Origin: an uncultured Lachnospiraceae bacterium
GTDB taxonomy: Bacteria > Bacillota > Clostridia > Lachnospirales > Lachnospiraceae
NCBI GenBank assembly: GCA_902775895.1
Contig: CACYNO010000002.1
Location: forward strand, 170,915 to 234,914
DNA length: 64,000 nt
Direction: 5' to 3'
Both the position numbers and the translations under genes were made by a program. Under the pieces are notes generated by a model, which worked only from the letters and a program-made list of their open reading frames with translations, had not been told where the DNA came from and did no database searches. Below, piece by piece: positions 29,638-42,236 of this stretch. How positions within the stretch are numbered: position 1 is the first letter of the stretch; each line of letters starts with the position of its first letter.

Positions 29638-30119
29638 GTGATAAAAGAAAAGACTATATCTCCTGGGACGAATATTTCATGGGGGTGGCGAAGCTTGCAG
29701 CCTTCAGGTCAAAGGATCCAAACACCCAGGTGGGGGCCTGCATAGTCAGTGAGGACAACAAGATACTTTCCATGGGCTACAACGGACTTCCCATCGGATG
29801 CTCCGATGACGAATTCCCCTGGTCCAGAGAAGGAGATCCTCTTGAGAACAAGTATCTGTATACAGCCCACAGCGAGCTGAACGCCATACTGAATTACAGA
29901 GGCGGGAGTCTTGAGGGTGCTAAGATGTACGTTACACTTTTTCCCTGTAATGAGTGTGCAAAGGCCATTATCCAGTCCGGGATAAAGACAGTGGTTTTTG
30001 AGTGCGATAAATATGCAGACACACCTGCAGTCATTGCGTCAAAGAGGATGTTTGACGCCGCGTCGGTAAGATATTATGAATATAATTCATCCGGAAGGCG
30101 CATTGATATTCAATTATAG
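29634..30119 (+). CDS. comEB: Deoxycytidylate deaminase / ComEB family
   Basis: The 161-residue zinc-dependent deaminase converts dCMP to dUMP for thymidylate synthesis. Zinc ligands and the catalytic Glu are in HSELNAI (~78-84) and PCNECAK (~107-113). ISWDEYFMGVAKLAAFRSKDPNTQVGACIV is the family N-terminus. Its start overlaps the rpiB stop (ATGA). Confidence 0.92.
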   Translation: MSDKRKDYISWDEYFMGVAKLAAFRSKDPNTQVGACIVSEDNKILSMGYNGLPIGCSDDEFPWSREGDPLENKYLYTAHSELNAILNYRGGSLEGAKMYVTLFPCNECAKAIIQSGIKTVVFECDKYADTPAVIASKRMFDAASVRYYEYNSSGRRIDIQL

Positions 30120-30135
30120 ATAGGAACATTTGAAA

Positions 30136-30573
30136 ATGAATTTTATCAAAGCAATAAGGGACAGACTGGCACAGGTAGACGAAGTAGTCCCCATACTTGT
30201 TTTTTTTGAACTTTTATATCTGGGGATAGGAGAACTGATCATTTGGGCCTTCCTGCCGGTAAACAAGCCTTCTGTGGCACTGGGCTTTGCCATAGGAGTG
30301 GGCTTTGCCATAATGAGTTCCATCCAGAATGCCTGGGTTTTATCAAGGGCACTCGGTAAAGCAAAAAGCAGGAAATCATCTTCGATAACCATGGTAATAT
30401 GGCTTATTGTCCGTATAGCGTGCATAGGAGGAATAGTGGTGCTGGCGGTGATCACAGACTTCTGCAGTCCCATCGCCATACTTATAGGAGTATTGTCCAT
30501 TCAGATTGGTGTGTATTTTGAACCTTGGGCAAGAAAGAGAAGACAGAAAAAAGAAAACAGAGAAGATAAATGA
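30136..30573 (+). CDS. AtpI-like four-helix membrane protein
   Basis: The 145-residue protein has about four hydrophobic helices (VPILVFFELLYLGIGELIIWAF, ALGFAIGVGFAIMSSI, ITMVIWLIVRIACIGGIVVLAVI, IAILIGVLSIQIGVYF) and a basic tail (RKRRQKKENREDK). Size and topology resemble ATP synthase protein I family members, but no atp genes follow. ATG 30136 is used; AGGA lies ~10 nt upstream. It overlaps the next gene by 4 nt. Confidence 0.55.
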   Translation: MNFIKAIRDRLAQVDEVVPILVFFELLYLGIGELIIWAFLPVNKPSVALGFAIGVGFAIMSSIQNAWVLSRALGKAKSRKSSSITMVIWLIVRIACIGGIVVLAVITDFCSPIAILIGVLSIQIGVYFEPWARKRRQKKENREDK

Positions 30574-32645
30574 GCAGAGGATACAAGAAAACCTACAGGA
30601 AAATGAAAAGGGTGTATAAGAATGTAGAGCTGGAAAGACGGCCCTTTCCCAAGCCTCTTCTTATCCTCATTATCTGTGCGGCAGCTTTTGTTGCCGCTTT
30701 TTTCGCTGTGCGGGCTCTTATTTCCCATTATGAAAGTACAAAGGTAACGCCCATGGTGCAGGAGACGGCAAGCCTTACTGCGGGGAAGACCAATCCCAGG
30801 ATCTGTATGCTGACACCGGAGGGAAGACGCTTTAATCTCATGACGGGAAATAAGGCGGAGGATTTTTCTAAAGACGAAAGAGGAAGCAGCCTGGTTCCCC
30901 TCTCGGAAGACAGGAAACAGAGAGTATTCATCGGTGCTTCGACCGAAGATATTAGTTCCCTTTCTTATCAGGTGAGGAATTCCGCAAATGGTGATCTGGT
31001 TGAGGAAACGACTCTTGAGGATATTAAAGCTGCTGAAGGCGGTGTGGAAGCCCTTATAGAGTTCAAAGACCTGATGAATGAAAAAAGGGAGTACAACCTC
31101 CAGCTCCGTCTGGAGATGAATGACGGTTCCGTGAGTCTTTACAATACCGCCATTGAGCTGATGGGTGATGTATGGGCTGAGGAAAAACTGGCCTATGTGG
31201 AGAAGTTGTCGGGATGGCTTTATGATCCGTCAAAGGGCGATGAGGTTTATGATGCGTTCTTACCATTATCTGATTCTGACGGCACTAATTTTGCGAAAGC
31301 AGGAATCAACAGCCTGACTTCCCTTCTTATGTGGGAGGGACTGGGAGCAAAGCCTGCTGAAACGCCTGTCCCCACCATAGTAAAAGTCGATGAGGAGTCC
31401 ACGAAGATAACTCAGAGTTATCCCATTGAGCTGTCTTCATCCGAAAATGAAAGGATTGTGGTAAATGAAGCATTTTCCGTGAAGATGACAAACTCGGGAG
31501 AAGTGATTCTGGAAAATTATGACAGGGACGCCTATGAGACTCTTTTGAACCCCTCCGTAAGAGAGGGAGCCCTTGATCTGGGATTTCAGGCCGGTGAAGA
31601 TATCAGTGCCCTTTCAAGTGAGGACGGTGGATATACGGCATTTATAAACGGAGGCAGTCTCTGGACGATAAAAGCCGGACATGATACGCAGAAAAGTAAG
31701 TTTACAAAGGTCTTTTCCCTGAGTTCCGAAAACGGAGCTGTCTTTGATTCATCGGGAGAGATAAAGGTAAACGATGAAGGTGATATAACAGGTATAAATC
31801 CCGAATACGGTATAAACATCCTGTCATTAGATAATGAAGGCAACATAAAGTTTACGGTTTACGGTACATATCCCGGAGGTTTCAGAAGCGGTGAGACGGG
31901 CATCAGTGTGTATTCATACAATGCAGGTGAAAACGGACTTACGGAACTGTTATTCATACCCGAGACGGGAGAGTTTGAGGACTTAAAGAAGGTGTCGGAT
32001 GAAAGCTATCTGAACGATAAGGGAGAGTTCTTTATCGTAAGAGAGGGGAAACTTTTGCAAATGGCAGAAGACGGAACCGTTGCCCGGGAGATCACTGATA
32101 CGAAAGGGGATGCGGTGTATTCCGTTTCGGAAAGCGGTGGATCTTACGCGGCTGAGCAAAAGGATAATATAGTTATCTATAATTGCGACAGTGATTCCTT
32201 AAAAGAGATATCCCATGCTGAAGGGGAGCGGCTGTTCCTTGCAGGATACACAGGTGAGGATCTGGTTTACGGTTTTGGAAATACGGAAAATGAATCTCCC
32301 GAGGGTAAGATATTTATGAATGAGATCAGGGTGATCGACAGGGACGGTAATGAGAAAATATCTTATAAAAATGAGGGGGTTTATTATTCTGATGTAGCCG
32401 TATATGATAACGGTGTTAAGTATAAGGAGTTTTCCAAAGAAGCCGACGGAAGCTTTAAGGAGATAAAAGAGGGCAGGATCGTTGCTAAGGATGATGCCGG
32501 TGATAAAAAGGTTTCCCTTGTTTTTGATACGGAGACGGGGAGACGTAAGCAGTTGAAGATGGTGTTTGAGGGGCATGTCAATAGTGATGACGGAGAGCCG
32601 GTGGTTGTTGAGAGTTGCAGATATACTAAAGTGCAATATGACTAA
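30570..32645 (+). CDS. Large single-pass extracytoplasmic protein of unknown function
   Basis: The 691-residue protein has a very basic cytoplasmic start (SRGYKKTYRKMKRVYKNVELERR), one membrane helix (LLILIICAAAFVAAFFAVRALI) and ~630 extracellular residues rich in short beta-strand repeats (GDITGINPEYGINILSLDNEGNIKF; VRVIDRDGNEKISY-like), suggesting a propeller-like or all-beta fold. I do not recognise the family. Cotranscribed with the AtpI-like gene. The last eight or so codons (CRYTKVQYD) lie in the inverted-repeat arm of the 32630-32823 palindrome. Confidence 0.7.
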   Translation: MSRGYKKTYRKMKRVYKNVELERRPFPKPLLILIICAAAFVAAFFAVRALISHYESTKVTPMVQETASLTAGKTNPRICMLTPEGRRFNLMTGNKAEDFSKDERGSSLVPLSEDRKQRVFIGASTEDISSLSYQVRNSANGDLVEETTLEDIKAAEGGVEALIEFKDLMNEKREYNLQLRLEMNDGSVSLYNTAIELMGDVWAEEKLAYVEKLSGWLYDPSKGDEVYDAFLPLSDSDGTNFAKAGINSLTSLLMWEGLGAKPAETPVPTIVKVDEESTKITQSYPIELSSSENERIVVNEAFSVKMTNSGEVILENYDRDAYETLLNPSVREGALDLGFQAGEDISALSSEDGGYTAFINGGSLWTIKAGHDTQKSKFTKVFSLSSENGAVFDSSGEIKVNDEGDITGINPEYGINILSLDNEGNIKFTVYGTYPGGFRSGETGISVYSYNAGENGLTELLFIPETGEFEDLKKVSDESYLNDKGEFFIVREGKLLQMAEDGTVAREITDTKGDAVYSVSESGGSYAAEQKDNIVIYNCDSDSLKEISHAEGERLFLAGYTGEDLVYGFGNTENESPEGKIFMNEIRVIDRDGNEKISYKNEGVYYSDVAVYDNGVKYKEFSKEADGSFKEIKEGRIVAKDDAGDKKVSLVFDTETGRRKQLKMVFEGHVNSDDGEPVVVESCRYTKVQYD

Positions 32646-32823
32646 ACAACCATACATGGCGTTTGTCACAGTAAAAGCGAAAAGTACAAGTTTATGTGCG
32701 CTGTACCTCACGCATGTACGTTTAATTTTTTTAAAAGTACTTTGCGCTCGCTAAGGCGCACAAAACTTGTCTTTTCGCTGTTTGGCTGACGTACGCTATC
32801 TGAAAGTTTGTCCATATTGCACT
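32630..32823. repeat. Palindromic repeat family II (194 bp)
   Basis: Perfect 11-bp terminal inverted repeats AGTGCAATATG (32630-32640) and CATATTGCACT (32813-32823) enclose arms that pair strongly (GCGAAAAGTACAAGTTTATGTGCGC-like left arm against its right-hand partner GCGCACAAAACTTGTCTTTTCGC), with an inner GTAC-containing hairpin. CAGAT lies just outside both ends. Unrelated in sequence to family I. It overlaps the stop of the upstream gene and precedes uvrA. Confidence 0.8.
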
Positions 32824-32870
32824 CCATTAATCTGAAGTCGTAACAAGCAACGGCGTTTAGGAGTATATTT

Positions 32871-35705
32871 ATGAAGAAGGGGCAGTTTAGGAATTATATA
32901 AAGATACGGGGTGCGGCGGAGCATAACCTGAAAAACATAGATGTGGATATACCCAGGGATGCGCTGGTGGTGCTTACGGGGATATCCGGGTCAGGGAAGA
33001 GTTCACTGGCATTCGATACAATTTACGCTGAGGGACAGAGAAGATACATGGAGTCCCTTTCTTCTTATGCAAGACAATTCCTGGGGCAGATGGAAAAGCC
33101 CAAGGTGGAGTCCATAGAGGGACTGTCTCCTGCTATATCCATAGACCAGAAATCCACCAACAGAAACCCCCGCTCCACTGTCGGAACCGTGACGGAAATA
33201 TATGATTATTTCAGGCTGCTTTATGCAAGAGTGGGGACGCCCCATTGTCCCAAGTGCGGCAAGAAAGTGGAAAAGCAGACCGTGGACCAGATGGTGGATG
33301 AACTTATGAACCTTCCCGAAAAGACCAAACTTCAGATCCTTGCCCCTGTTGTGCGGGGACGAAAAGGTGAGCATGAAAAGGTTTTTGAAAGTGCAAGGAA
33401 GTCGGGCTATGCCAGAGTGCTGGTGGACGGTAATGTGTATGAACTCACGGAAGACATTAAGCTCGAGAAAAATAAAAAGCATGATATATCCGTGGTTGTG
33501 GATCGTATAGTTATCAAGGACGGTATACAAAAAAGGCTTACGGATTCGGCTGAGACTGCACTTAAGCTTGGCGAAGGGCTTATGGATGCGGAGATACCCG
33601 GCGGGGAGACCTATAAGTTTTCCCAGAGTTTTGCCTGCCCCGACTGCGGTATAAGCATAGATGAGATAGAACCCAGGAGCTTTTCCTTCAATAATCCCTT
33701 TGGTGCGTGTCCCGACTGTTTCGGACTGGGATTTAAGATGGAGTTTGACCCGGAGCTTATGATACCGGATCAGAGCCTGAGTATAAACGAAGGCGCCATC
33801 ATGGCCCCGGGCTGGGCATCTGCGGTGGATGATAAGAGTTTTTCGGGATCTCTCCTGAAGGCTATGGCAGAGGAGTACGGTTTTTCCCTTGATACCCCCT
33901 TTGGTAAATATCCCAAAAAGGTTAAGGATCTGATAATACACGGAACCGGCGGCAAGGCGGTAAAGGTGCATTACCGTGGCCAGCGGGGCGTGGGAGTGTA
34001 TGATATCTCCTTTGAGGGTCTTGTAAAAAATATGGAGCAGAGATACCGGGAGACCGGGTCTGATATCATGAAGCAGCAGTACGAGGCCTTTATGCGTATC
34101 ACCCCCTGTGTTGCCTGCGGCGGAAGGCGCTTGAAGGAGTCTTCCCTGGCGGTGACCGTTGCGGATAAAAATATCTATGAGATGACGGTGATGTCTATTG
34201 ATAAGCTGGCAGGATTTCTGGAGGGTGTTTCGTTTAGCAAGCGCCAGCTTGATATTGGCGGGGAGATTCTGAAGGAGATAAAGGCGAGGCTTGAGTTCCT
34301 TCTTGACGTGGGACTTGATTATCTGTCTCTTTCAAGGGCAACGGGAACCCTGTCCGGAGGGGAGGCACAGCGGATACGCCTTGCCACCCAGATAGGCTCG
34401 GGGCTTGTGGGAGTGGCGTATATCCTTGACGAGCCAAGTATAGGGTTGCACCAGAGGGATAACGACAAGCTTATAGCTACCCTGACCAGACTGAGAGACT
34501 TAGGGAACACGGTTATAGTGGTAGAGCACGACGAGGACACCATGCGGGCTGCCGACTGGATAGTGGATATCGGTCCCGGTGCCGGTGAGCACGGCGGCGA
34601 GGTTGTGGCGGTTGGGACTGCCGAGGACATTTGTAAAAAGAAAAAGTCTGTTACAGGGGCTTATCTCAGCGGCAGGGAAAAGATACCGGTGCCGGCTTCA
34701 AGGAGAAAGGCAACGGAGTTTATCACCATTAAGGGAGCTAAGGAAAACAATCTAAAGAATATCGATGTGGATATCCCAATCGGTGTATTTACCTGTGTTA
34801 CCGGGGTTTCCGGATCGGGGAAGAGTTCTCTTATAAATGAGATACTTTATAAAAGGCTGGCTAAAGAGCTGAACCGTGCCGTGACGGTGCCGGGAAAGCA
34901 CGATAAGATAGCGGGGCTTGGGAATCTGGATAAAGTTATAGACATTGACCAGGCACCTATAGGCAGAACCCCAAGATCAAACCCGGCTACATATACGGGA
35001 GTGTTTGATATCATAAGAGACCTTTTTGCAGCCACTACGGATGCCAAGGAGCGGGGATACAAGAAGGGGAGATTCAGCTTTAACGTAAAGGGCGGCCGGT
35101 GCGAGGCATGCTCCGGAGACGGTATCATCAAGATAGAGATGCATTTTCTTCCTGACGTGTACGTGCCCTGCGAAGTCTGCGGCGGCAAGAGGTATAACCG
35201 TGAGACCCTTGAGGTGCGCTACAAGGGAAAGACCATTTACGATGTGCTGAACATGACCGTGGATGAGGCAGTGGAATTTTTTGAAAATGTGCCGACTCTG
35301 CGAAGAAAAATAGAGACCATCCAGGAAGTGGGGCTTGGATATATCCGCCTGGGTCAGCCCTCCACGGAGCTTTCCGGTGGTGAGGCGCAGCGTATGAAGC
35401 TGGCGACGGAGCTTTCCAAAAAGAGTACGGGACGCACTGTCTACATACTCGATGAGCCCACCACGGGACTGCATTTTGCGGATGTGCATAAGCTGACGGA
35501 TATACTTCAGAGACTCATAGAAGGGGGTAATACCGTTATCGTTATCGAGCATAACCTGGATGTGATAAAGACTGCGGACTATATCATCGATATGGGTCCG
35601 GAAGGGGGAGATGGCGGCGGTACGGTTATCGCCACGGGTACTCCGGAAGAGGTGGCGAAGGTTAAGAAATCGTATACGGGGCAGTATCTGAAGAAGTATG
35701 TTTGA
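32871..35705 (+). CDS. uvrA: Excinuclease ABC subunit A
   Basis: The 944-residue DNA-damage sensor of nucleotide excision repair has two ABC ATPase halves: Walker [10 protein letters not shown] (~37) and GVSGSGKSS (~645), signature [12 protein letters not shown] and [12 protein letters not shown], Walker [11 protein letters not shown] and [10 protein letters not shown], and zinc motifs including [16 protein letters not shown], and [17 protein letters not shown]. Length is typical. ATG follows TAGGAG. No LexA-like box was recognised; uvrB is not adjacent. The promoter of the first antitoxin RNA overlaps its stop codon. Confidence 0.97.
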
Positions 35706-35729
35706 CTTATGAATGATAAGTGATATAAT
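35702..35729 (+). promoter_or_regulatory. Promoter of antitoxin RNA 1
   Basis: TTGACT at 35702-35707 (overlapping the uvrA stop), 16-bp spacer, TATAAT at 35724-35729. Same boxes and spacer as the antitoxin RNA 2 promoter. Confidence 0.85.
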
Positions 35730-35734
35730 CAGAA

Positions 35735-35815
35735 AAGGAGCGGTACTAAGTTGCGCCGCCCTTGTTGATGTTAAACCGTCCGAAGACCGTTCAAATCTTA
35801 AAGGACGGTTTTTTA
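35735..35815 (+). ncRNA. Type I antitoxin RNA 1 (antisense)
   Basis: Predicted ~80-nt RNA from the strong promoter at 35702-35729 to a terminator (AAACCGTCC at 35773-35781 with GGACGGTTT at 35803-35811, then T). It is antisense to the 3' end and 3' untranslated region of the toxin 1 mRNA, overlapping the toxin stop codon. It is closely similar in sequence to antitoxin RNA 2 on the other strand (GAGCGGTACT-AGTT, CCCTTGTTGAT, TTCAAATCTT blocks in the same order). Confidence 0.75.
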
Positions 35816-35893
35816 ATCTCTACTTACAGTGTAGAGGAGTGCCATAACAGCGACAATTAATTGGTATAGGCCAATCAGATCATCAAAGTCCAT
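35813..35893 (-). CDS. Small hydrophobic type I toxin-like peptide 1
   Basis: A 26-residue peptide with an excellent ribosome binding site (AAGGAGG). It starts MDFDDLIGLYQLIVAV, continues through a single hydrophobic segment with an ALLY motif, and ends in a short polar tail (VSRD). Size, single helix and antisense partner match holin-like / TxpA-type toxins that insert into the membrane. Promoter TTTACA-17-TATATT lies at 35975-35947. In its leader CCCCCTTG can pair with the ribosome binding site CAAGGAGG, hiding it. Confidence 0.7.
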   Translation of the reverse strand: MDFDDLIGLYQLIVAVMALLYTVSRD

Positions 35894-35901
35894 GGCACGC
35901 A

Positions 35902-35924
35902 CCTCCTTGTTATGATCAAGGGGG
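35902..35924 (-). promoter_or_regulatory. Shine-Dalgarno-sequestering hairpin in toxin 1 mRNA
   Basis: On the minus strand CCCCCTTG (35924-35917) and CAAGGAGG (35909-35902) can form seven of eight pairs around a 7-nt loop, masking the toxin's ribosome binding site. Confidence 0.55.
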
Positions 35925-35946
35925 CGGCAACCGTTCCCGCCGGAAT

Positions 35947-35975
35947 AATATATCATGCAAACGTATGTTTGTAAA
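35947..35975 (-). promoter_or_regulatory. Promoter of toxin 1
   Basis: On the minus strand TTTACA (35975-35970), 17-bp spacer, TATATT (35952-35947). Confidence 0.65.
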
Positions 35976-35982
35976 TATGGAT

Positions 35983-36014
35983 TTTAAAACCCGCCAGTAT
36001 AGTTCAGGCGGGTT
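35983..36014. terminator. Hairpin upstream of toxin 2
   Basis: AAAACCCGCC and GGCGGGTTTT form a 10-bp stem. It could be a bidirectional terminator separating the two modules, or a structured leader of toxin 2 mRNA, whose promoter I could not place with confidence. Confidence 0.6.
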
Positions 36015-36048
36015 TTATTTACTTGAATAAAACAAAAGGGTGAAGCCA

Positions 36049-36144
36049 ATGACGATAGAAACATGGATTGCCTTGTGCGAACTTGCTATATCGTTTGCGG
36101 CACTCCTTTACGAGATATTAAAGGATAAAAATAACCGCCTTTAA
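36049..36144 (+). CDS. Small hydrophobic type I toxin-like peptide 2
   Basis: A 31-residue peptide starting MTIETWIALCELAISFAALL with a basic/polar tail (KDKNNRL). It resembles the putative holin-like toxin family in length and N-terminal pattern and shares the ALLY motif with peptide 1. Ribosome binding site AGGGTGA lies 6 nt upstream. Its mRNA probably ends at the hairpin 36182-36213, fully overlapped by antitoxin RNA 2. Confidence 0.7.
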   Translation: MTIETWIALCELAISFAALLYEILKDKNNRL

Positions 36145-36212
36145 AGATTTGAAACGTCTTTAAGGCGGTTTAGAATCAACAAGGGCGCTAACTAAGTACC
36201 GCTCTTTTTGTG
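36130..36212 (-). ncRNA. Type I antitoxin RNA 2 (antisense)
   Basis: Predicted ~83-nt RNA from the promoter TTGACT-16-TATAAT (36245-36218) to a terminator in which AACCGCC and GGCGGTT pair (36133-36170), followed by ATTTTTAT on the minus strand. It is antisense to the last codons and the 3' region of toxin 2 and is homologous to antitoxin RNA 1 in mirror orientation. Confidence 0.75.
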
Positions 36213-36217
36213 CTTTA

Positions 36218-36245
36218 ATTATAGCATTTTAATTTTATAAGTCAA
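36218..36245 (-). promoter_or_regulatory. Promoter of antitoxin RNA 2
   Basis: On the minus strand TTGACT (36245-36240), 16-bp spacer, TATAAT (36223-36218). Confidence 0.85.
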
Positions 36246-36306
36246 CGGTGACACTTTATGCTATTATAATCGGAGTAGAAAAAAATGCTTCGGAAGGGAG
36301 GAGACC

Positions 36307-38091
36307 ATGAAGATAGCAGCGGTTACGCCGAAGATACATTTGGGAGATTGTGAGTACAATGCCGGCAGGATAGCAGAGTATGCTGAAAAAGCGGCAGCAG
36401 AGGGCTGCAGGCTGGTGGTGTTTCCGGAGCTTGTGCTTACGGGCAGCACCTGCGGTGATATTCCGGGAAATGCCGACTTTGAAAAAGCCGCGGCGACGGC
36501 TTTGGAGAAGATACGGGAAGAGACGGCGGAGTTAAAGAACCTGGCCATAGTTTTTGGTGCACCGTTTTATCGGGAAAGGACAGGTGCTGAGGACAAAGCC
36601 CAAAAGGAAGATGCGGGTGCAGTCGCTAAGGGCGACGTTCCGCGCAAAGGAAAAAGCTACAGGAGCGGCATAGTTCTCATAAAAAATGGTGACCTGCGAT
36701 ATGTAAACGAAGGTGACCTCGTAGAGATCGACGGAAAAAAGATGTATTTCATCACGGGTCCGGCTAATCTGAAAAATAAAGCGGAACTCATAGAGGTTGA
36801 CGGCATATCGGACCCTGCCGGCGTGGAAGACAAAAAAGCAGATATCATCCTGTGGATGTGCAATCTTGAGCACCATGCAGGAAGCCTGTGTGAATACTTT
36901 CAAAAATTAAAAGATTTATCAAAAGAGACCTCTGCAGATGTGATATGCGTCTCCTCAGGAGAAGGTGAGTCCACGGATGAGTGCGTCTACAGCGGCCTTA
37001 AAGCCTGTGTCTGCGGGGATGAGATCATGGATCACTCTGAAAAGACAGGCATGTGCGTATTTGATACGGAAGACAGGGAGCAGGTGCATTTTCCTTCATA
37101 TAAGGAAGGAAACGATGGATTCCTTCCCGAAGATGAGGATGCCCGGGAGCATTTCTGCCTGGACATTCTGAGTATTCAGGCGAAGGCCCTGGCGGGGCGC
37201 CTGGATTTTCTGAATATGAAGAAGTGCATAATAGGTCTCTCCGGCGGTCTTGATTCCACCCTTGCCCTGGTGGCGGCGGTAAATGCCTTTGACAGGCCGG
37301 GGATTGACCGGAAGGGGATCATCTGTGTAACAATGCCCGGCTTCGGGACGGGAAGTGTCACTAAAAACAACGCCCGCCGTCTTGCGGAAGCCTTTGGCGT
37401 TACCCTGCGGGAGATCGATATAAAAGAGCAGACGGCACTGCATCTGAGAAGTATCGGCCAGCCCGAAAATGACGGGGCATTTGTAAGTGACGTTACCTTT
37501 GAAAATGCCCAGGCAAGAGTGCGCACCATGATACTTATGAATATAGCAAATATGGAAAACTCCATTGTTATAGGGACAGGTGACATGTCGGAGCTTGCCT
37601 TGGGCTGGTGCACATACAACGGAGATCATATGTCTATGTATTCCGTAAATTCGGGAGTGCCTAAGACTGCAATAGCGCCGGTTCTCAGGACATACGCAAA
37701 AAAAATAGCACAGCCCGGGGAGAGGGGACTTTTAAGCGAAATCTTTGAAAGCATTATCGGAACTCCCGTAAGTCCGGAGCTCCTGCCCACGGATGAAAAG
37801 GGCGAGGTGGTTCAAAAGACAGAGGACAGTCTGGGACCGTATGATCTGCACGACTATTTCCTGTATATGTTTCTGAAAGAGGATCATACGACGGAAGAAA
37901 TATACGAAAGATGTGCGGAAAAGTTCAAAGGTATCTACGATAAGGATCTTATCTTAAAAACCCTGAATACATTTAAAAAGAGATTCTTCACCCAGCAGTT
38001 TAAACGCTCGTGCCTGCCGGTGGGGACAAAAGTTCTGGAACACAGCTTATCACCCAGAAGCGGATTTTTGATGGCGAGTGATATGTGGTGA
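36307..38091 (+). CDS. nadE: NAD+ synthetase with a degenerate glutaminase domain
   Basis: The 594-residue protein converts deamido-NAD to NAD+. The C-terminal synthetase domain (~290-594) is intact: GLSGGLDSTLALV P-loop, QARVRTMILMNIAN, GTGDMSELALGWCTYNGDHMSMY. The N-terminal nitrilase domain is eroded: the Glu (FPELVLTGSTCGD) remains, but the Lys motif (usually PKTFLPNY) aligns with NEGDLVE, and the Cys motif (usually EICEDVW) aligns with ELIEVDG. The downstream landmark GEGESTDECVYSG keeps the alignment in register. The protein is ~45 residues shorter than usual. It probably uses free ammonia. ATG follows GGAGGAGACC. Confidence 0.9.
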   Translation: MKIAAVTPKIHLGDCEYNAGRIAEYAEKAAAEGCRLVVFPELVLTGSTCGDIPGNADFEKAAATALEKIREETAELKNLAIVFGAPFYRERTGAEDKAQKEDAGAVAKGDVPRKGKSYRSGIVLIKNGDLRYVNEGDLVEIDGKKMYFITGPANLKNKAELIEVDGISDPAGVEDKKADIILWMCNLEHHAGSLCEYFQKLKDLSKETSADVICVSSGEGESTDECVYSGLKACVCGDEIMDHSEKTGMCVFDTEDREQVHFPSYKEGNDGFLPEDEDAREHFCLDILSIQAKALAGRLDFLNMKKCIIGLSGGLDSTLALVAAVNAFDRPGIDRKGIICVTMPGFGTGSVTKNNARRLAEAFGVTLREIDIKEQTALHLRSIGQPENDGAFVSDVTFENAQARVRTMILMNIANMENSIVIGTGDMSELALGWCTYNGDHMSMYSVNSGVPKTAIAPVLRTYAKKIAQPGERGLLSEIFESIIGTPVSPELLPTDEKGEVVQKTEDSLGPYDLHDYFLYMFLKEDHTTEEIYERCAEKFKGIYDKDLILKTLNTFKKRFFTQQFKRSCLPVGTKVLEHSLSPRSGFLMASDMW

Positions 38092-38135
38092 CAGGAGGAT
38101 GGATCTTTTTGTTATCAAAAAAACATGGAGAAAAA

Positions 38136-40769
38136 ATGAGAAGTTTGTCTGAAAAAAGAAGAAGGTCGATAACTGGAAATATATTTAATTTTATCCTGCC
38201 GGCAATCATTGTTTTTATCATCATTTTTTTTGTATTTTTTCTTTTGAGAATCGCACCTTTCGGGGGAAATACCCTTGCTATCGAAGATTCATTTATTCAG
38301 TATCTGGATTTTTTTGGTTTTTATAAAGATTTCCTTAATGGTGATAACAGCATCATATACAGTTTTTCAAATTACCTCGGAGGCAGTACCATCGGAGTTT
38401 TTGCGTATTATCTTGCTTCTCCGGTAAATTTTCTTATTGCTTTTTTTGATAAAGATAATATGGTTATCTTCTATCATTTGGCGTTGGCAGTAAAACTCAG
38501 CTTATGTGCAGGTACTTTTTCAGTTTTTCTTAAAGGAAGATTTCAGGGCAGGATCGGTCTTTTAATGTCATGTTTGTTGTCGGTATCTTATGCGCTGATG
38601 AATTATGATCTTGTTCAGTCGAGAAATATAATGTGGCTGGACGGAGTTTTTATGCTGCCGCTTATCATGCTGGGAATGTACAAGATCATCAACGGAAAAT
38701 CCATAGTTTGGTTTAGTGTTCCCCTGGCACTTTCAATGATCTTTAACTGGTATACCGGTGGCATAAATATTATTTTCAGCATGATCTGGTTTGTTTTTGA
38801 GTTGATCATTTGCAGAAAAAAAGAAGAGAATTGGCCTAAATATACATTTCTGAACATAATTAAATATATATACTCACTTATCGCCGGAGTTTTAATAAGT
38901 TTGTTGCTCATGCTCCCGGTGATCTATGATCTCAGACAGGGGAGAGGATCTGAATTTGATTGGAAAAATCTATCGCCGCTTTTTAACGGGAATCCTTTAT
39001 CTTTGATAACACGGTATTCCATTGGCGCGGAGAGTGAATTTTCAGCCTTTTCCATATACTGCGGAGCTTTTATCCTGATCTGCCTGATACTGTTTTTTAC
39101 AACACGTGTTACCAAAACAAGAAATAAGATAATCGGTGCAGTTATGCTTTTTTCGGTTGTTATAATGCTTTACTGGCAGCCGTTCTTCTTTTTGTTTTCT
39201 CTTTTAAAGAGAGTTGGCAGTTATTATTCAAGATATTCATATATAGCCGTCTTTATTTTGGTATTCATAGCAGCCTTTTACCTGGCAGATTCGATCACGA
39301 AAAAAAAGGGTGCTGTCAACGGGCGAAGTTATAAACTGTATTGGATAGTATTTGTATCCTTTTGCGCATCTTTTCTCATCCTGTCTTTTATAGGACCGGA
39401 CCGGAAAAACGAGTATGCTGTCATAACAGTGTTATTATTTGCGGTAACAGCAGTATTGTTGTTTCTGGTTACAAGATACAAACACAGGGAAAGGCTGAAA
39501 AAAACAGCACAGGTTCTGCTCGTTTGCACCGTGCTGTTTGACATGACATTAAACAGTTATATCCTGTATAAGTCCGACATGTGGCAGGCGGCTGACTACA
39601 TAAGATCATACGATTCTCATGTGGTTAAACAATTGGCTGAAATAGAAAAAGACGGGGGAAGCCTTAGCGGCTACAGGATAAATCGCACATCGGTTAGAAA
39701 CAGTCAGCGTCTTCGTAAGGAGACTGACCTGATAGAGGGAAAGTTTTATCAGGCGAACTATGACGAGGCTTTTATGTTCAATTATCATGGGATTTCAGGT
39801 TACACATCCTGTCCGGATAATGATCAGTTAGGTTTTATTTCAGCATTGGGATACAGTATATCAAGCAACTGTATTACGGTGATAAATGATACTTTGTTAC
39901 CTGCAGATTCTCTTTTGGGGGCAAGGTATATTTCAACATTTTATCCTCTGGGTGGATCAAAGGAGATTGCACATGATGATGACACCGGTTTTTTATACAA
40001 AAACGAATATGCATTTCCTTTGGCATTCAAAGTTAAAGATCATGAAATAATAAAAACGGAACAACCGGATAGTTCCGGGGCATTTGAGTATCAAAGCTTT
40101 ATATTGGGATCACTGACCGGAGTGGATGAAGGACTTTATGATGAGGTTTCCTTTACGGAAGAAAAAGAAAAAGAATCCGTCAGTTATGAACTGGATAACG
40201 TTGATAAGGATGATATAATTTACGGATATATTCCGCAGGGTGATAATAAAAGCGGTTCCGTTATGATAGGACATGATTACAGTATCAGATATTTTTGGTG
40301 GTTATCTCCGAAAATTTTCAGAGTCATACCGGAAATAAATGCTGCCGGAAATGCGGTCGTAAAAGCGGATGCAGCAGATACTGCCACATTGGGAAAAGCC
40401 GCATTTGTAAAGCTGCGAAAAGAGGTTCTCAGGGAAATGTCTGACTCTGCCAATAAAGAAAAGGCCGATAATATCGAAATGGAATCATCATCTTTTTCAT
40501 GCAATGCAGATGCCGGTGACAATGAATATCTGTTTTTATCCGTACCATATTCAAAAGGGATGAATGTGAGTGTAAACGGTAAAACAGTAAAGCCTGAACT
40601 TGTCGGAGGATGTCTGATGATCGTTCCATTAGAGAACGGTCATAACGATATCAGCGTAAGATATGTTCTTCCTTATCAGAAAGAGGGCATAATATGCGCA
40701 GTTGCGGGAGGGGCAATGATATTTGTTTACCTGTTGTGCAAATATAAAATAAAAAAAAGAAATAATTGA
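38136..40769 (+). CDS. YfhO-family polytopic membrane protein (GT-C-like)
   Basis: The 877-residue protein has a basic start, about a dozen or more transmembrane helices over the first ~530 residues, and a C-terminal extracellular beta-rich domain ending in a last helix (AVAGGAMIFVYLLCKYKIKKRNN). N-terminal GGNTLAIEDSFIQYLDFFGFYKD and LSYALMNYDLVQSRNIMWLDGV.MLPLI fit the YfhO family, whose members glycosylate lipoteichoic acid in Bacillus and Listeria. The gene is A+T-rich like the LTA-synthase-like gene. Start ATG 38136 is used (GGAG 6 nt upstream); an upstream GTG overlapping nadE is possible. A strong bidirectional terminator follows. Confidence 0.82.
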   Translation: MRSLSEKRRRSITGNIFNFILPAIIVFIIIFFVFFLLRIAPFGGNTLAIEDSFIQYLDFFGFYKDFLNGDNSIIYSFSNYLGGSTIGVFAYYLASPVNFLIAFFDKDNMVIFYHLALAVKLSLCAGTFSVFLKGRFQGRIGLLMSCLLSVSYALMNYDLVQSRNIMWLDGVFMLPLIMLGMYKIINGKSIVWFSVPLALSMIFNWYTGGINIIFSMIWFVFELIICRKKEENWPKYTFLNIIKYIYSLIAGVLISLLLMLPVIYDLRQGRGSEFDWKNLSPLFNGNPLSLITRYSIGAESEFSAFSIYCGAFILICLILFFTTRVTKTRNKIIGAVMLFSVVIMLYWQPFFFLFSLLKRVGSYYSRYSYIAVFILVFIAAFYLADSITKKKGAVNGRSYKLYWIVFVSFCASFLILSFIGPDRKNEYAVITVLLFAVTAVLLFLVTRYKHRERLKKTAQVLLVCTVLFDMTLNSYILYKSDMWQAADYIRSYDSHVVKQLAEIEKDGGSLSGYRINRTSVRNSQRLRKETDLIEGKFYQANYDEAFMFNYHGISGYTSCPDNDQLGFISALGYSISSNCITVINDTLLPADSLLGARYISTFYPLGGSKEIAHDDDTGFLYKNEYAFPLAFKVKDHEIIKTEQPDSSGAFEYQSFILGSLTGVDEGLYDEVSFTEEKEKESVSYELDNVDKDDIIYGYIPQGDNKSGSVMIGHDYSIRYFWWLSPKIFRVIPEINAAGNAVVKADAADTATLGKAAFVKLRKEVLREMSDSANKEKADNIEMESSSFSCNADAGDNEYLFLSVPYSKGMNVSVNGKTVKPELVGGCLMIVPLENGHNDISVRYVLPYQKEGIICAVAGGAMIFVYLLCKYKIKKRNN

Positions 40770-40783
40770 AAGAAATTCGAACA

Positions 40784-40820
40784 GAGGGACGGTTTTTTGC
40801 TGACAAAAAAACCGTCCCTC
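40784..40820. terminator. Bidirectional terminator between yfhO-like and SDR genes
   Basis: GAGGGACGGTTTTTT and AAAAAAACCGTCCCTC form a near-perfect stem with a ~6-nt loop; T/A tracts lie inside the stem so it works in both directions. Confidence 0.9.
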
Positions 40821-40827
40821 CGTTATC

Positions 40828-41478
40828 CTACCAGATGAAATTCGACTTCAACGCCTCTCCGTTATCCACAAGAAGCGCTTCTCCCGTCATAGATCTGTTC
40901 ACACATGCGAGAAAATAAACCCAGTCGGCTATTTCCTCCGGATACGCCCATTTATGCAAAAGCGCCTCTTCAAGAACCGCCTCGTAAAGTTCTTTACTGT
41001 CAAGTATGTGCTTATTCATGGAGGTGATTACTCCGCCGGGGCAGAGGGCATTGGCACATGCACCGTATTTTGCAAGACGCAGTGCGATATTTTTTGTATA
41101 GGCGATAAGCCCGCCTTTTGAAGCCGCATAGTGAGGAAATTCCGAACCGGTAATTCCCGATGCGGAGGCGATATTTACCACGGATCTTATCCTGCCCTGA
41201 AACGCAAAATGCTCCGTAAGAGCTATTACACCGTTAAGATTAACATTAATATCATCAACCGTCTGTGATTGTATGCCGGCACTGTTAACAAGGATCTCCA
41301 CGGCGGAAACCTCCGGATAATCCTCATTCCTGATATCATGGACCACATGAGTATATACAGGATGACTTATAACACTTTCTTTTATGTCCATACCCGTCAC
41401 TTCGTGACCTTCTTTTAAAAATTTCTCACATACGGCTTGTCCTATACCTCCGGCAGAGCCGGTAACAAGTATCTTCAT
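40828..41478 (-). CDS. Short-chain dehydrogenase/reductase
   Basis: The 216-residue classical SDR has TGSAGGIG (residues ~6-13), NSAG (~65; NNAG variant), catalytic Ser in NIASASG and YAASK (Tyr/Lys), then PGGV. It is short for the family (~250), lacking part of the substrate-binding region. Substrate unknown. It overlaps the stop of the queuosine-precursor transporter by 4 nt, so the two are translated together under the preQ1 riboswitch. No other queuosine-synthesis gene is adjacent. Confidence 0.85.
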   Translation of the reverse strand: MKILVTGSAGGIGQAVCEKFLKEGHEVTGMDIKESVISHPVYTHVVHDIRNEDYPEVSAVEILVNSAGIQSQTVDDINVNLNGVIALTEHFAFQGRIRSVVNIASASGITGSEFPHYAASKGGLIAYTKNIALRLAKYGACANALCPGGVITSMNKHILDSKELYEAVLEEALLHKWAYPEEIADWVYFLACVNRSMTGEALLVDNGEALKSNFIW

Positions 41479-42236
41479 TTCTTTCCTCCTGCTTCTTTTA
41501 AATAGATCATATATTTTTCGCCTACATTATTATCTTCCCAGTTTTTAGCCACTCTGTATCCGATGGGGGAAAATACGATCTCACACAGCAGTTCTGCTAC
41601 CGCTCCCGTAAGTGCACACATCAGGCACTGGGTGGTGGTCCAGCCGAAGAATATTCTTGATACCATGAATGCAAATATAAGATTATCGGCAAACTGTCCC
41701 ACAAAGGTCGATACATACGAGCGGAGGACAAATTTTCCGAAGCCTCCTTTTGCATTGTCTCCCGAAGCCCGGCCTATGAGCCAGTTCAGTTCGTTATTGA
41801 TAACGGATGAGGCTATGAATGCAACGGAAGAACCCAGAAGTACATACCAGGTGCCCCGGAAGGTATGGTCCAGGGCATAATTAATGACAGTCGATGACGT
41901 GCCCGACTCATCAAAAGATTCTCCCCATTCTCCCGGTATAAAACTTGCCGCCAGGAACATGACCGCCATAAAAAGATTTACTATTAGTGCAATGAATGAC
42001 AGCAGGATGGCTGCTCTCGGTCCGAAATGTTTCGTTACCATATCCATTACAAGAAAAGCAAGCCATGAAAAAATTATCCCGCAATCCAGGGCGAGCCAGT
42101 CCACGGGAAGGGCAATACTCTTATTTGCCAACAGGTTCATGGCAACTACTGATAACACAAAAAAAACGGTGACGATGCCGGGAATACTTCTCCACAGAAG
42201 CACGGCCTCTTTGAAAATGTTAGTACGGTTATTCAT
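41475..42236 (-). CDS. yhhQ: VUT/YhhQ-family queuosine precursor transporter
   Basis: The 253-residue membrane protein has about six helices (IVTVFFVLSVVAMNLLAN, CGIIFSWLAFLVMDMVTKHFG, AILLSFIALIVNLFMAVMFLAASF, and others) and the family landmarks AFIASSVINNELNW and FVLRSYVSTFVGQFADNLIF. YhhQ proteins import preQ0/preQ1 or queuine. The leader carries a preQ1-I riboswitch-like pseudoknot, which supports this substrate independently. tgt, the tRNA-guanine transglycosylase, is 3 kb away on the other strand. Confidence 0.9.
   Translation of the reverse strand: MNNRTNIFKEAVLLWRSIPGIVTVFFVLSVVAMNLLANKSIALPVDWLALDCGIIFSWLAFLVMDMVTKHFGPRAAILLSFIALIVNLFMAVMFLAASFIPGEWGESFDESGTSSTVINYALDHTFRGTWYVLLGSSVAFIASSVINNELNWLIGRASGDNAKGGFGKFVLRSYVSTFVGQFADNLIFAFMVSRIFFGWTTTQCLMCALTGAVAELLCEIVFSPIGYRVAKNWEDNNVGEKYMIYLKEAGGKK

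What the first reader, a model, noticed from the sequence alone, without database searches (positions are those of the whole stretch)
35702..36245. Mirror-image pair of type I toxin-antitoxin modules
Two tiny hydrophobic peptides (26 and 31 residues, both with an ALLY motif) are transcribed divergently from a common centre. Facing each, from outside, is a short RNA with an identical promoter architecture (TTGACT-16-TATAAT) that overlaps the toxin's 3' end and ends in a hairpin. The two antitoxin RNAs are related in sequence (shared GAGCGGTACT, CCCTTGTTGAT and TTCAAATCTT blocks), yet their terminator stems and the peptides have diverged, so cross-talk or insulation between twins can be studied. 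Layout resembles txpA/RatA and the clostridial convergent modules, but the inverted twin is unusual.
Basis: partly seen in the sequence, partly recalled or inferred. Interest (0 to 1): 0.75.

Follow-up and report, generated by a model that had tools for sequence, protein, structure and literature searches.

The report
SOS-driven type I toxin, mismatched twin
Two facing mini toxin genes with RNA antidotes sit in a bacterial genome, and the complete one carries a switch that suggests DNA damage turns it on, in the way known from the E. coli toxin TisB.

Summary
Two small hydrophobic ORFs (26 and 31 aa, both ALLY) face away from each other, each met by a convergent antisense gene with a TTGACT-16-TATAAT promoter; the antisense genes are paralogues. 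Everything is predicted from sequence; there are no RNA data.

The twins are unequal. The left toxin promoter holds CAAACATACGTTTG, the LexA box type found at lexA and recA of the same genome. Two more complete copies in this genome and two in a sister species carry such a box at the same place; 3 of the genome's 8 boxes lie at these toxins. The mRNA has a start-codon helix with compensatory changes and, in 9 of 10 copies, a leader-to-3' pairing. The right module lacks box, recognisable promoter and leader pairing. Its toxin ORF groups with another subfamily and its antitoxin with the left type: a mosaic, not a simple inverted copy. Five genomes of the genus each hold a toxin-less antitoxin with a promoter-like site.

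LexA-type boxes also front Hol_Tox-like toxins in two other genera of the family. Best reading: a type I family with an SOS-controlled toxin, working like tisB/istR-1 in a TxpA/RatA-like layout. New variant of a known kind.

The parts
32871..35705 (+). uvrA, left neighbour; its stop codon overlaps the -35 of the left antitoxin promoter
   Evidence: ORF of 944 aa; the name UvrA is by recall; in G006 the same uvrA-nadE junction has no module
35702..35729 (+). left antitoxin promoter TTGACT-16-TATAAT
   Evidence: promoter-like site at this place in 15 of 15 antitoxin copies compared
35736..35814 (+). left antitoxin RNA (predicted, about 79 nt), ending in hairpin 35773-35811 and a T run
   Evidence: R2 match over 35702-35814 with 115.8 bits (this copy is one of the model's training sequences)
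35733..35764 (-). left toxin mRNA terminator (hairpin and T run), antisense to the 5' part of the antitoxin
   Evidence: read from the sequence; not listed by the terminator scan
35813..35893 (-). left toxin ORF, 26 aa, one hydrophobic segment
35840..35897 (-). start-codon helix: around the AUG (35897-35886) with codons 14-18 (35852-35840, ending in the MA codons)
   Evidence: two-sided changes in five pairs across 10 copies
35902..35907 (-). Shine-Dalgarno AGGAGG of the left toxin
35916..35942 (-). toxin leader that pairs with the mRNA 3' end (about 35765-35738)
35947..35975 (-). left toxin promoter TTTACA-17-TATATT
35958..35971 (.). LexA-type box CAAACATACGTTTG in the toxin promoter
   Evidence: only exact CRAACRNRYGTTYG site in the window; same box type at lexA and recA
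35985..36017 (.). hairpin upstream of the left toxin promoter, read as an insulating terminator; present at this place in the three copies of this genome (left, C4, C5), not in G006a or G006b
35998..36003 (+). weak candidate -10 (TATAGT) for the right toxin, in the hairpin loop, without a -35
   Evidence: sequence; not listed
36049..36144 (+). right toxin ORF, 31 aa
   Evidence: groups with the G002a toxin
36183..36209 (+). right toxin mRNA terminator (hairpin and T run)
   Evidence: read from the sequence and fold; not listed
36129..36211 (-). right antitoxin RNA (predicted, about 83 nt)
   Evidence: R2 match over 36129-36245 with 111.7 bits (also a training sequence)
36218..36245 (-). right antitoxin promoter TTGACT-16-TATAAT
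36307..38091 (+). nadE, right neighbour
   Evidence: ORF of 594 aa; the name is by recall

Best explanation
The left half is a complete type I toxin-antitoxin module under SOS control. LexA bound at 35958-35971 keeps the toxin promoter off. A strong constitutive promoter makes an antisense RNA that pairs over about 80 nt with the toxin mRNA's 3' UTR, probably leading to RNase III cleavage. Leaked mRNA is also folded shut: the start codon pairs with the far end of the ORF, and the leader pairs with the 3' end, the same stretch the antitoxin targets. After DNA damage LexA is cleaved, mRNA outruns antitoxin, and a one-helix membrane peptide slows or stops the cell. The right half is a mosaic: a toxin ORF of another subfamily with an antitoxin gene of the left type, without LexA box, clear promoter or leader pairing. 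It is probably poorly expressed and may act mainly as an extra antitoxin, like the toxin-less antitoxins elsewhere in the genus. Shown by sequence: box, promoter-like sites, paralogy, RNA covariation, toxin loss at one locus; supported by short trees: the mosaic. Inferred: LexA binding, transcription, RNA-RNA action, cleavage, toxicity.
For: LexA box: the genome has 8 CRAACNNNNGTTYG sites: 2 between lexA and a divergent gene, 1 before recA, 1 before a Y-family polymerase (name by recall), 3 in toxin promoters (left module, C4, C5), 1 inside an ORF. In G006 the strict box has 4 sites: both complete toxin copies, recA, and one upstream of what reads as the same polymerase gene; in G001 recA and lexA carry it. 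In other genera, G368 and G323 each have 2 sites of a LexA-TATAWT pattern, and all 4 front Hol_Tox-like peptides. RNA: start-codon helix with 93 of 110 cells paired, slid versions 28-53, five pairs with two-sided changes. Leader to 3' pairing of -26 to -36 kcal/mol in 9 of 10 copies; permuting 3' ends among those 9 reaches the own total in 10 of 20000 trials. Promoter-like sites at 15 of 15 antitoxins. Retained antitoxin: at the G000 C5 locus versus G006 identity is 93% up to the antitoxin end, then 264 nt with the toxin half stand against 51 nt. Mosaic right half: antitoxin tree 98/98, ORF tree 95/97.
Against: No transcripts, no binding data, no toxicity data. The box count in the genome equals that of the reversed control pattern (8 and 8), so the case rests on where the sites lie. 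The window peptides have no match in Pfam, NCBIfam, PHROGs or PADLOC better than E 0.07. Swapping right arms of the start-codon helix among copies reaches the observed pairing in 30 of 5000 trials, so much of that signal is shared ancestry. Among the four G002 copies alone, own leader pairing ranks second of 24 permutations; in C5 it beats shuffled leaders only at z -2.1. Trees rest on 118 and 103 columns, most forks are open and the bootstrap had not settled. The left ORF differs from its sister copies mostly by non-synonymous changes (21 bases in non-synonymous against 3 in synonymous codons versus C5). The upstream hairpin is missing in G006a and G006b. The closest relative G006 lacks the module at this place.
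Confidence: 0.72

Rival explanations
1. Both halves are live, equal modules that arose by local inverted duplication and are insulated from each other; the right toxin has a promoter that I failed to recognise.
For: The antitoxin genes of the twins are close (77% identity over 111 columns; winL is the row nearest to winR by path). The right ORF is intact, with a Shine-Dalgarno-like sequence and part of the start helix (7 of 11 pairs). A longest crossed run of 13 nt and a gap of 55-62 kcal/mol to cognate pairing fit partial insulation.
Against: The right toxin ORF groups with G002a (95/97), not with the left ORF. Its leader pairing is no better than with shuffled leaders (z 0.3). No promoter is listed upstream of it.
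Confidence: 0.2
2. The LexA-like box is a chance match and the left toxin is simply constitutive and held down by its antitoxin.
For: The motif is not more frequent genome-wide than its reversed control (8 and 8 sites). The four G002 toxin copies, with other promoters and no box seen, suggest that the family can live without it.
Against: Five of five complete left-type copies in two genomes carry it at the same place, with varying central bases, and Hol_Tox-like toxins in two other genera carry such boxes too.
Confidence: 0.07
3. No toxin at all: the stretch is a pair of antisense RNAs and terminators between uvrA and nadE, and the small ORFs are incidental.
For: Toxin-less antitoxins with kept promoter-like sites exist, so the RNA may have a use of its own. 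The conserved GGCACTCCT stretch is partly explained by RNA pairing rather than peptide.
Against: A short hydrophobic ORF is kept in 10 copies, one of them with ATA in place of ATG. C5 and G006b encode the same peptide with 3 synonymous and no other changes. The same antitoxin model finds antitoxins opposite Hol_Tox peptides in other genera.
Confidence: 0.05

Closest known systems
tisB/istR-1 of E. coli (with dinQ/agrB and symE/symR)
   Same: Toxin promoter with LexA control, constitutive RNA antitoxin, inhibitory mRNA structure, a 29-aa inner-membrane peptide for TisB (passages seen in PMC8309996, PMC5848175, PMC6562991).
   Different: Other phylum, other LexA box, antitoxin convergent and fully overlapping the mRNA 3' UTR (that istR-1 is divergent is recalled). 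No sequence relation was tested.
TxpA/RatA of B. subtilis and convergent type I modules of C. difficile (CD2517.1-RCd8 and others)
   Same: Toxin and antitoxin converge and share a long complementary stretch (C. difficile layout from passages in PMC6563280; TxpA/RatA layout recalled).
   Different: The passages seen give Sigma B, not LexA, as regulator in C. difficile. The window peptides match no Pfam or NCBIfam toxin family. Here two modules stand head to head as a mosaic pair.
Hol_Tox (PF16935) putative holin-like toxins
   Same: The antitoxin model R2 finds antitoxins opposite Hol_Tox peptides in G416, G283 and G368 (L134). LexA-fronted peptides L134 and L240 are above the Pfam cut-off, L170 and L239 below it.
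   Different: The two window peptides and the two sister peptides tested (C5/G006b, G002b) have no match to PF16935; the other sister peptides were not scanned.
zorO-orzO and zorP-orzP of E. coli O157:H7
   Same: A duplicated type I locus (start of the abstract of PMC3919570).
   Different: Here two subfamilies joined head to head, with different toxin control; the zor layout itself was not compared.

Membership tests
Type I toxin-antitoxin system | Small hydrophobic peptide gene | tested here: met
   26 and 31 aa, best 17-residue hydropathy 2.06 and 1.89
Type I toxin-antitoxin system | Antisense RNA gene with its own promoter overlapping the toxin mRNA | tested here: met
   By sequence only; promoter-like sites in 15 of 15 copies
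Type I toxin-antitoxin system | Peptide is toxic and the RNA prevents it | not testable with these tools
   Needs expression experiments
TxpA/RatA family | Convergent 3' overlap | tested here: met
TxpA/RatA family | Peptide recognised by a curated type I toxin family | tested here: not met
   Window peptides: no Pfam family up to E 10; in NCBIfam one weak match of another kind for the left peptide, E 0.077. No direct comparison with TxpA was run
Hol_Tox (PF16935) | Score above the Pfam cut-off | tested here: not met
   Window peptides: no match; kinship is seen only through the antitoxin RNA model
SOS-controlled type I systems (tisB type) | LexA box overlapping the toxin promoter | tested here: met
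   Left half, C4, C5, G006a, G006b; right half: none seen
SOS-controlled type I systems (tisB type) | LexA binding and induction by DNA damage | not testable with these tools
   Needs binding assay and RNA measurement

The most novel reading that the evidence does not exclude
Hol_Tox-like type I toxins are regular members of the SOS regulon in several Lachnospiraceae genera, an independent counterpart of tisB/istR-1. In this species 3 of the 7 LexA boxes that the pattern finds outside ORFs drive one toxin family, and related antitoxins, including toxin-less ones and the right twin, form a shared network that sets the threshold for SOS-triggered growth arrest.
Probability: 0.45. Interest if true: 0.78.

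Novelty: new variant of a known kind. Interest (0 to 1): 0.6.

Why it matters
The passages I saw in four papers name SOS-controlled type I toxins only from E. coli (PMC5848175, PMC6562991, PMC6563280, PMC8309996), and the titles and abstract starts listed by my eight paper searches showed none for Gram-positive bacteria. If the prediction holds, DNA-damage-triggered membrane toxins arose or were recruited independently in a family of common anaerobes, which bears on survival under DNA-damaging drugs. The natural series in one genus (complete module, modules of another subfamily, mosaic, toxin-less antitoxin) also lets one test how such modules decay and whether lone antitoxins act on toxins elsewhere.

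Tried and rejected
Exact DNA patterns for the antitoxin found only the window's genome in 61 and 348 genomes and nothing in viral contigs; they were too strict, since models built from more copies found more. Plasmid blastn: 3 records, best E 2; phage blastn: 28 records, best listed E 0.04, all short. The best phage match was looked at and rejected as chance, by my reading part of a helicase gene. Leader pattern and ALLY-terminator pattern: 0 in viral contigs. The genome-contig scan gave 6 stretches: 3 are known copies (G006 two, G002 one); the other 3 are chance, lying in open frames of other genes or without a toxin-like ORF. Rfam, 30000-42000 only: 3 weak matches, none at its gathering score. 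Mobile-element origin: the 15-kb G002 contig with three copies shows ordinary chromosomal-looking genes by eye; no family search was run on them.

Local inverted duplication as the origin of the pair was considered and set aside for the toxin ORF because of the tree; for the antitoxin half it, or gene conversion, remains possible. A link through uvrA was considered: no exact box stands near uvrA in the window.

Survey of LexA box plus TATAWT (the printed list was cut). I fetched 143 stretches (30 loci, then) and scanned 145 sites: 109 have a longer ORF by the script's rule, 6 a small hydrophobic ORF, 30 neither, some because the stretch was short. Of the 6 I accept L170, L239 and L240 and reject L148, L202 and L254 by eye as badly placed or with poor start sites. 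The fourth accepted site, L134, came first through the antitoxin model and was scanned. The site in G014 (L211) was fetched but not scored by the script.

Antitoxin model R2 in the family: 13 hits at E 0.01 or better in 12 genomes other than G000. Looked at: 11, 2. Eight of 13 face a plausible small hydrophobic ORF by eye; L121, L126, L128, L130 and L131 do not.

Insulating hairpin: first read as part of every module, but it is absent in G006a and G006b, so this was narrowed to the three copies of this genome.

Full report
What is there. The stretch 35702-36245 lies between uvrA (32871-35705) and nadE (36307-38091) (gene names by recall). Two small ORFs point away from each other, and two antisense genes point inwards and end at the toxin 3' ends. 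The antisense genes are paralogues over their whole length: inverted repeats of 75-85% complementarity join 35702-35814 with 36129-36245, and the alignment runs on into the ALLY codons. The antitoxin RNAs fold better than 200 of 200 shuffles each. The left toxin mRNA folds far better than its shuffles (z -6.8), the right one less so (z -3.2, one of its shuffles as good).

The overlooked element. The left toxin promoter is TTTACA-17-TATATT. It holds CAAACATACGTTTG, the only exact match to CRAACRNRYGTTYG in 64 kb. In the same genome such boxes stand between lexA and a divergent gene (two), before recA, and directly before a Y-family polymerase gene. Eight CRAACNNNNGTTYG sites exist in 1,653,067 bases; besides the window's own, two others led to two further complete copies of the left module, C4 and C5, with box, leader, toxin and antitoxin. 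The last site is inside an ORF. The reversed control pattern also has 8 sites, so the number alone proves nothing; the places do.

The family. A covariance model from four copies, run on 61 genomes, gave 15 hits at E 2e-4 or better, all in 5 of 11 genomes of the genus; none of the 50 others has a hit at E 0.001 (best 0.005, stricter filters). G006 and G002 are uncultured Lachnospiraceae assemblies RUG10926 and RUG12934 by contig match (that RUG stands for rumen is recalled). G006 has two complete copies with box, CAAACATACGTTTG and CAAACATTAGTTTG, and recA with the same box type. G001 has the box at recA and lexA. G002 has four toxin-bearing copies without a box that I could see, and no strict box in its genome, which is 88% complete; its antitoxins form their own group, which I call the second subfamily. 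Five antitoxins stand without an intact toxin, one each in G006 (G006c), G001, G004, G000 (C9) and G002 (G002d); all five keep a promoter-like site, G006c with GTGACT instead of TTGACT and C9 with TTTAAT instead of TATAAT. One loss is seen directly: the G000 C5 locus and its G006 counterpart match at 93% through the antitoxin, then 264 nt stand against 51 nt. At uvrA-nadE, G006 has no module.

How the mRNA is kept silent. Around the start codon, UGCCAUGACGAU pairs with codons 14-18 of the same ORF. Across 10 copies 93 of 110 cells pair, with slid versions at 28-53. Five pairs show changes on both sides, in G002c, G002e and winL. Swapped arms reach the value in 30 of 5000 trials, so part of it is shared ancestry. 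In winR and G002a (7 of 11 pairs each) I read the helix as shifted by one base. The leader pairs with the mRNA 3' end in 9 of 10 copies at -26 to -36 kcal/mol; winR has -11.1, no better than shuffled leaders. For the 9, permuted 3' ends reach the own total in 10 of 20000 trials; among the four G002 copies alone the true pairing ranks second of 24. Leader shuffles kept base composition only. The start helix also explains in part why the ALLY region is so alike at the DNA level.

The twins are not equals. The antitoxin tree of 15 puts winR with the left type against G002 (98/98), while the toxin ORF tree of 10 pairs winR with G002a (95/97); most other forks are open and the bootstrap had not settled. 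The right toxin has no LexA box, no listed promoter and no leader pairing. The hairpin at 35985-36017 that separates the ORFs has counterparts directly upstream of the toxin promoters of C4 and C5, so I read it as the left module's insulator; G006a and G006b have none. Predicted antitoxin-mRNA energies: cognate -153.8 (left) and -143.9 (right), crossed -92.2 and -89.2; longest perfect crossed run 13 nt. Cross-talk is possible but should be weaker than cognate action. The C9 lone antitoxin reaches -102.1 with the left mRNA.

Beyond the genus. A second model from 15 antitoxins, run on 397 family genomes, gave 13 genomes including G000 at E 0.01 or better. Of 13 hits outside G000, 8 face a small hydrophobic ORF, three of which are Hol_Tox above cut-off (L122, L129, L134). 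A LexA box plus TATAWT pattern matched in 140 of 397 genomes. Of 145 sites scanned, 109 precede longer ORFs, among them YneA-like and Y-family polymerase genes by my reading. Four sites, two each in G368 and G323, drive Hol_Tox-like peptides. L134 and L240 are above the Hol_Tox cut-off; L170 and L239 are below it. The antitoxin model supports L134 (E 7.6e-8) and L239 (2.2e-4), supports L170 weakly (0.005, 0.064), and finds none for L240, whose downstream sequence looks rearranged. I did not check the LexA boxes of lexA or recA in those two genomes.

Known systems. Passages in PMC5848175, PMC6562991, PMC6563280 and PMC8309996 name SOS control of type I toxins for E. coli tisB, symE and dinQ; the C. 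difficile modules are described with Sigma B promoters. The C. difficile LexA paper PMC4234289 has no hit for toxin-antitoxin, holin or antisense in its main text. Eight paper searches showed, in the titles and abstract starts listed, no SOS-controlled type I system of a Gram-positive bacterium; the library holds open-licence papers only, so this is weak evidence of absence. Duplicated type I loci are known (zorO/zorP, abstract start of PMC3919570).

Verdict. A type I system by anatomy, with SOS control predicted for the left toxin; it works like tisB/istR-1 in a TxpA/RatA-like layout, but the window peptides pass no curated family cut-off. The right half looks like a mosaic whose toxin may be silent.

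Noticed in passing
L118 (G001:C8) around 549-562: A further LexA-type promoter (TTGACA-17-TATATT with CAAACGTATGTTTG in the spacer) in front of the small hydrophobic ORF MMSIDSFVSIAGLCLTCFSLGLALGLSKTKK; only weak antitoxin-model matches nearby (L212, E 0.26 and 0.56).
   Followed up: partly
L090 (G000:C2:94204-94293): Remnant of a toxin 3' end (LFYTISRD-like) without a recognisable antitoxin, on the same contig as the window.
   Followed up: no
L085 and L087 (G002c, G002e promoters): Inverted repeat GTTGCTA...TAGCAAC spans the toxin promoters of two second-subfamily copies; it may be an operator for another regulator.
   Followed up: no
L240 (G323:C22): Hol_Tox peptide behind a LexA-type box, but the usual antitoxin is not seen; the sequence downstream looks like a transposon end, by eye.
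   Followed up: no
L209 583-697 (G368:C6): Antitoxin-like RNA gene (E 4.4e-8) with no toxin-like ORF opposite, about 2.2 kb from a complete module: a toxin-less antitoxin in another genus.
   Followed up: partly
window 35983-36084 (-): Weak Rfam match to Bacillus sRNA ncr1175 (24.8 bits, gathering score 60), covering the separating hairpin; taken as chance.
   Followed up: no
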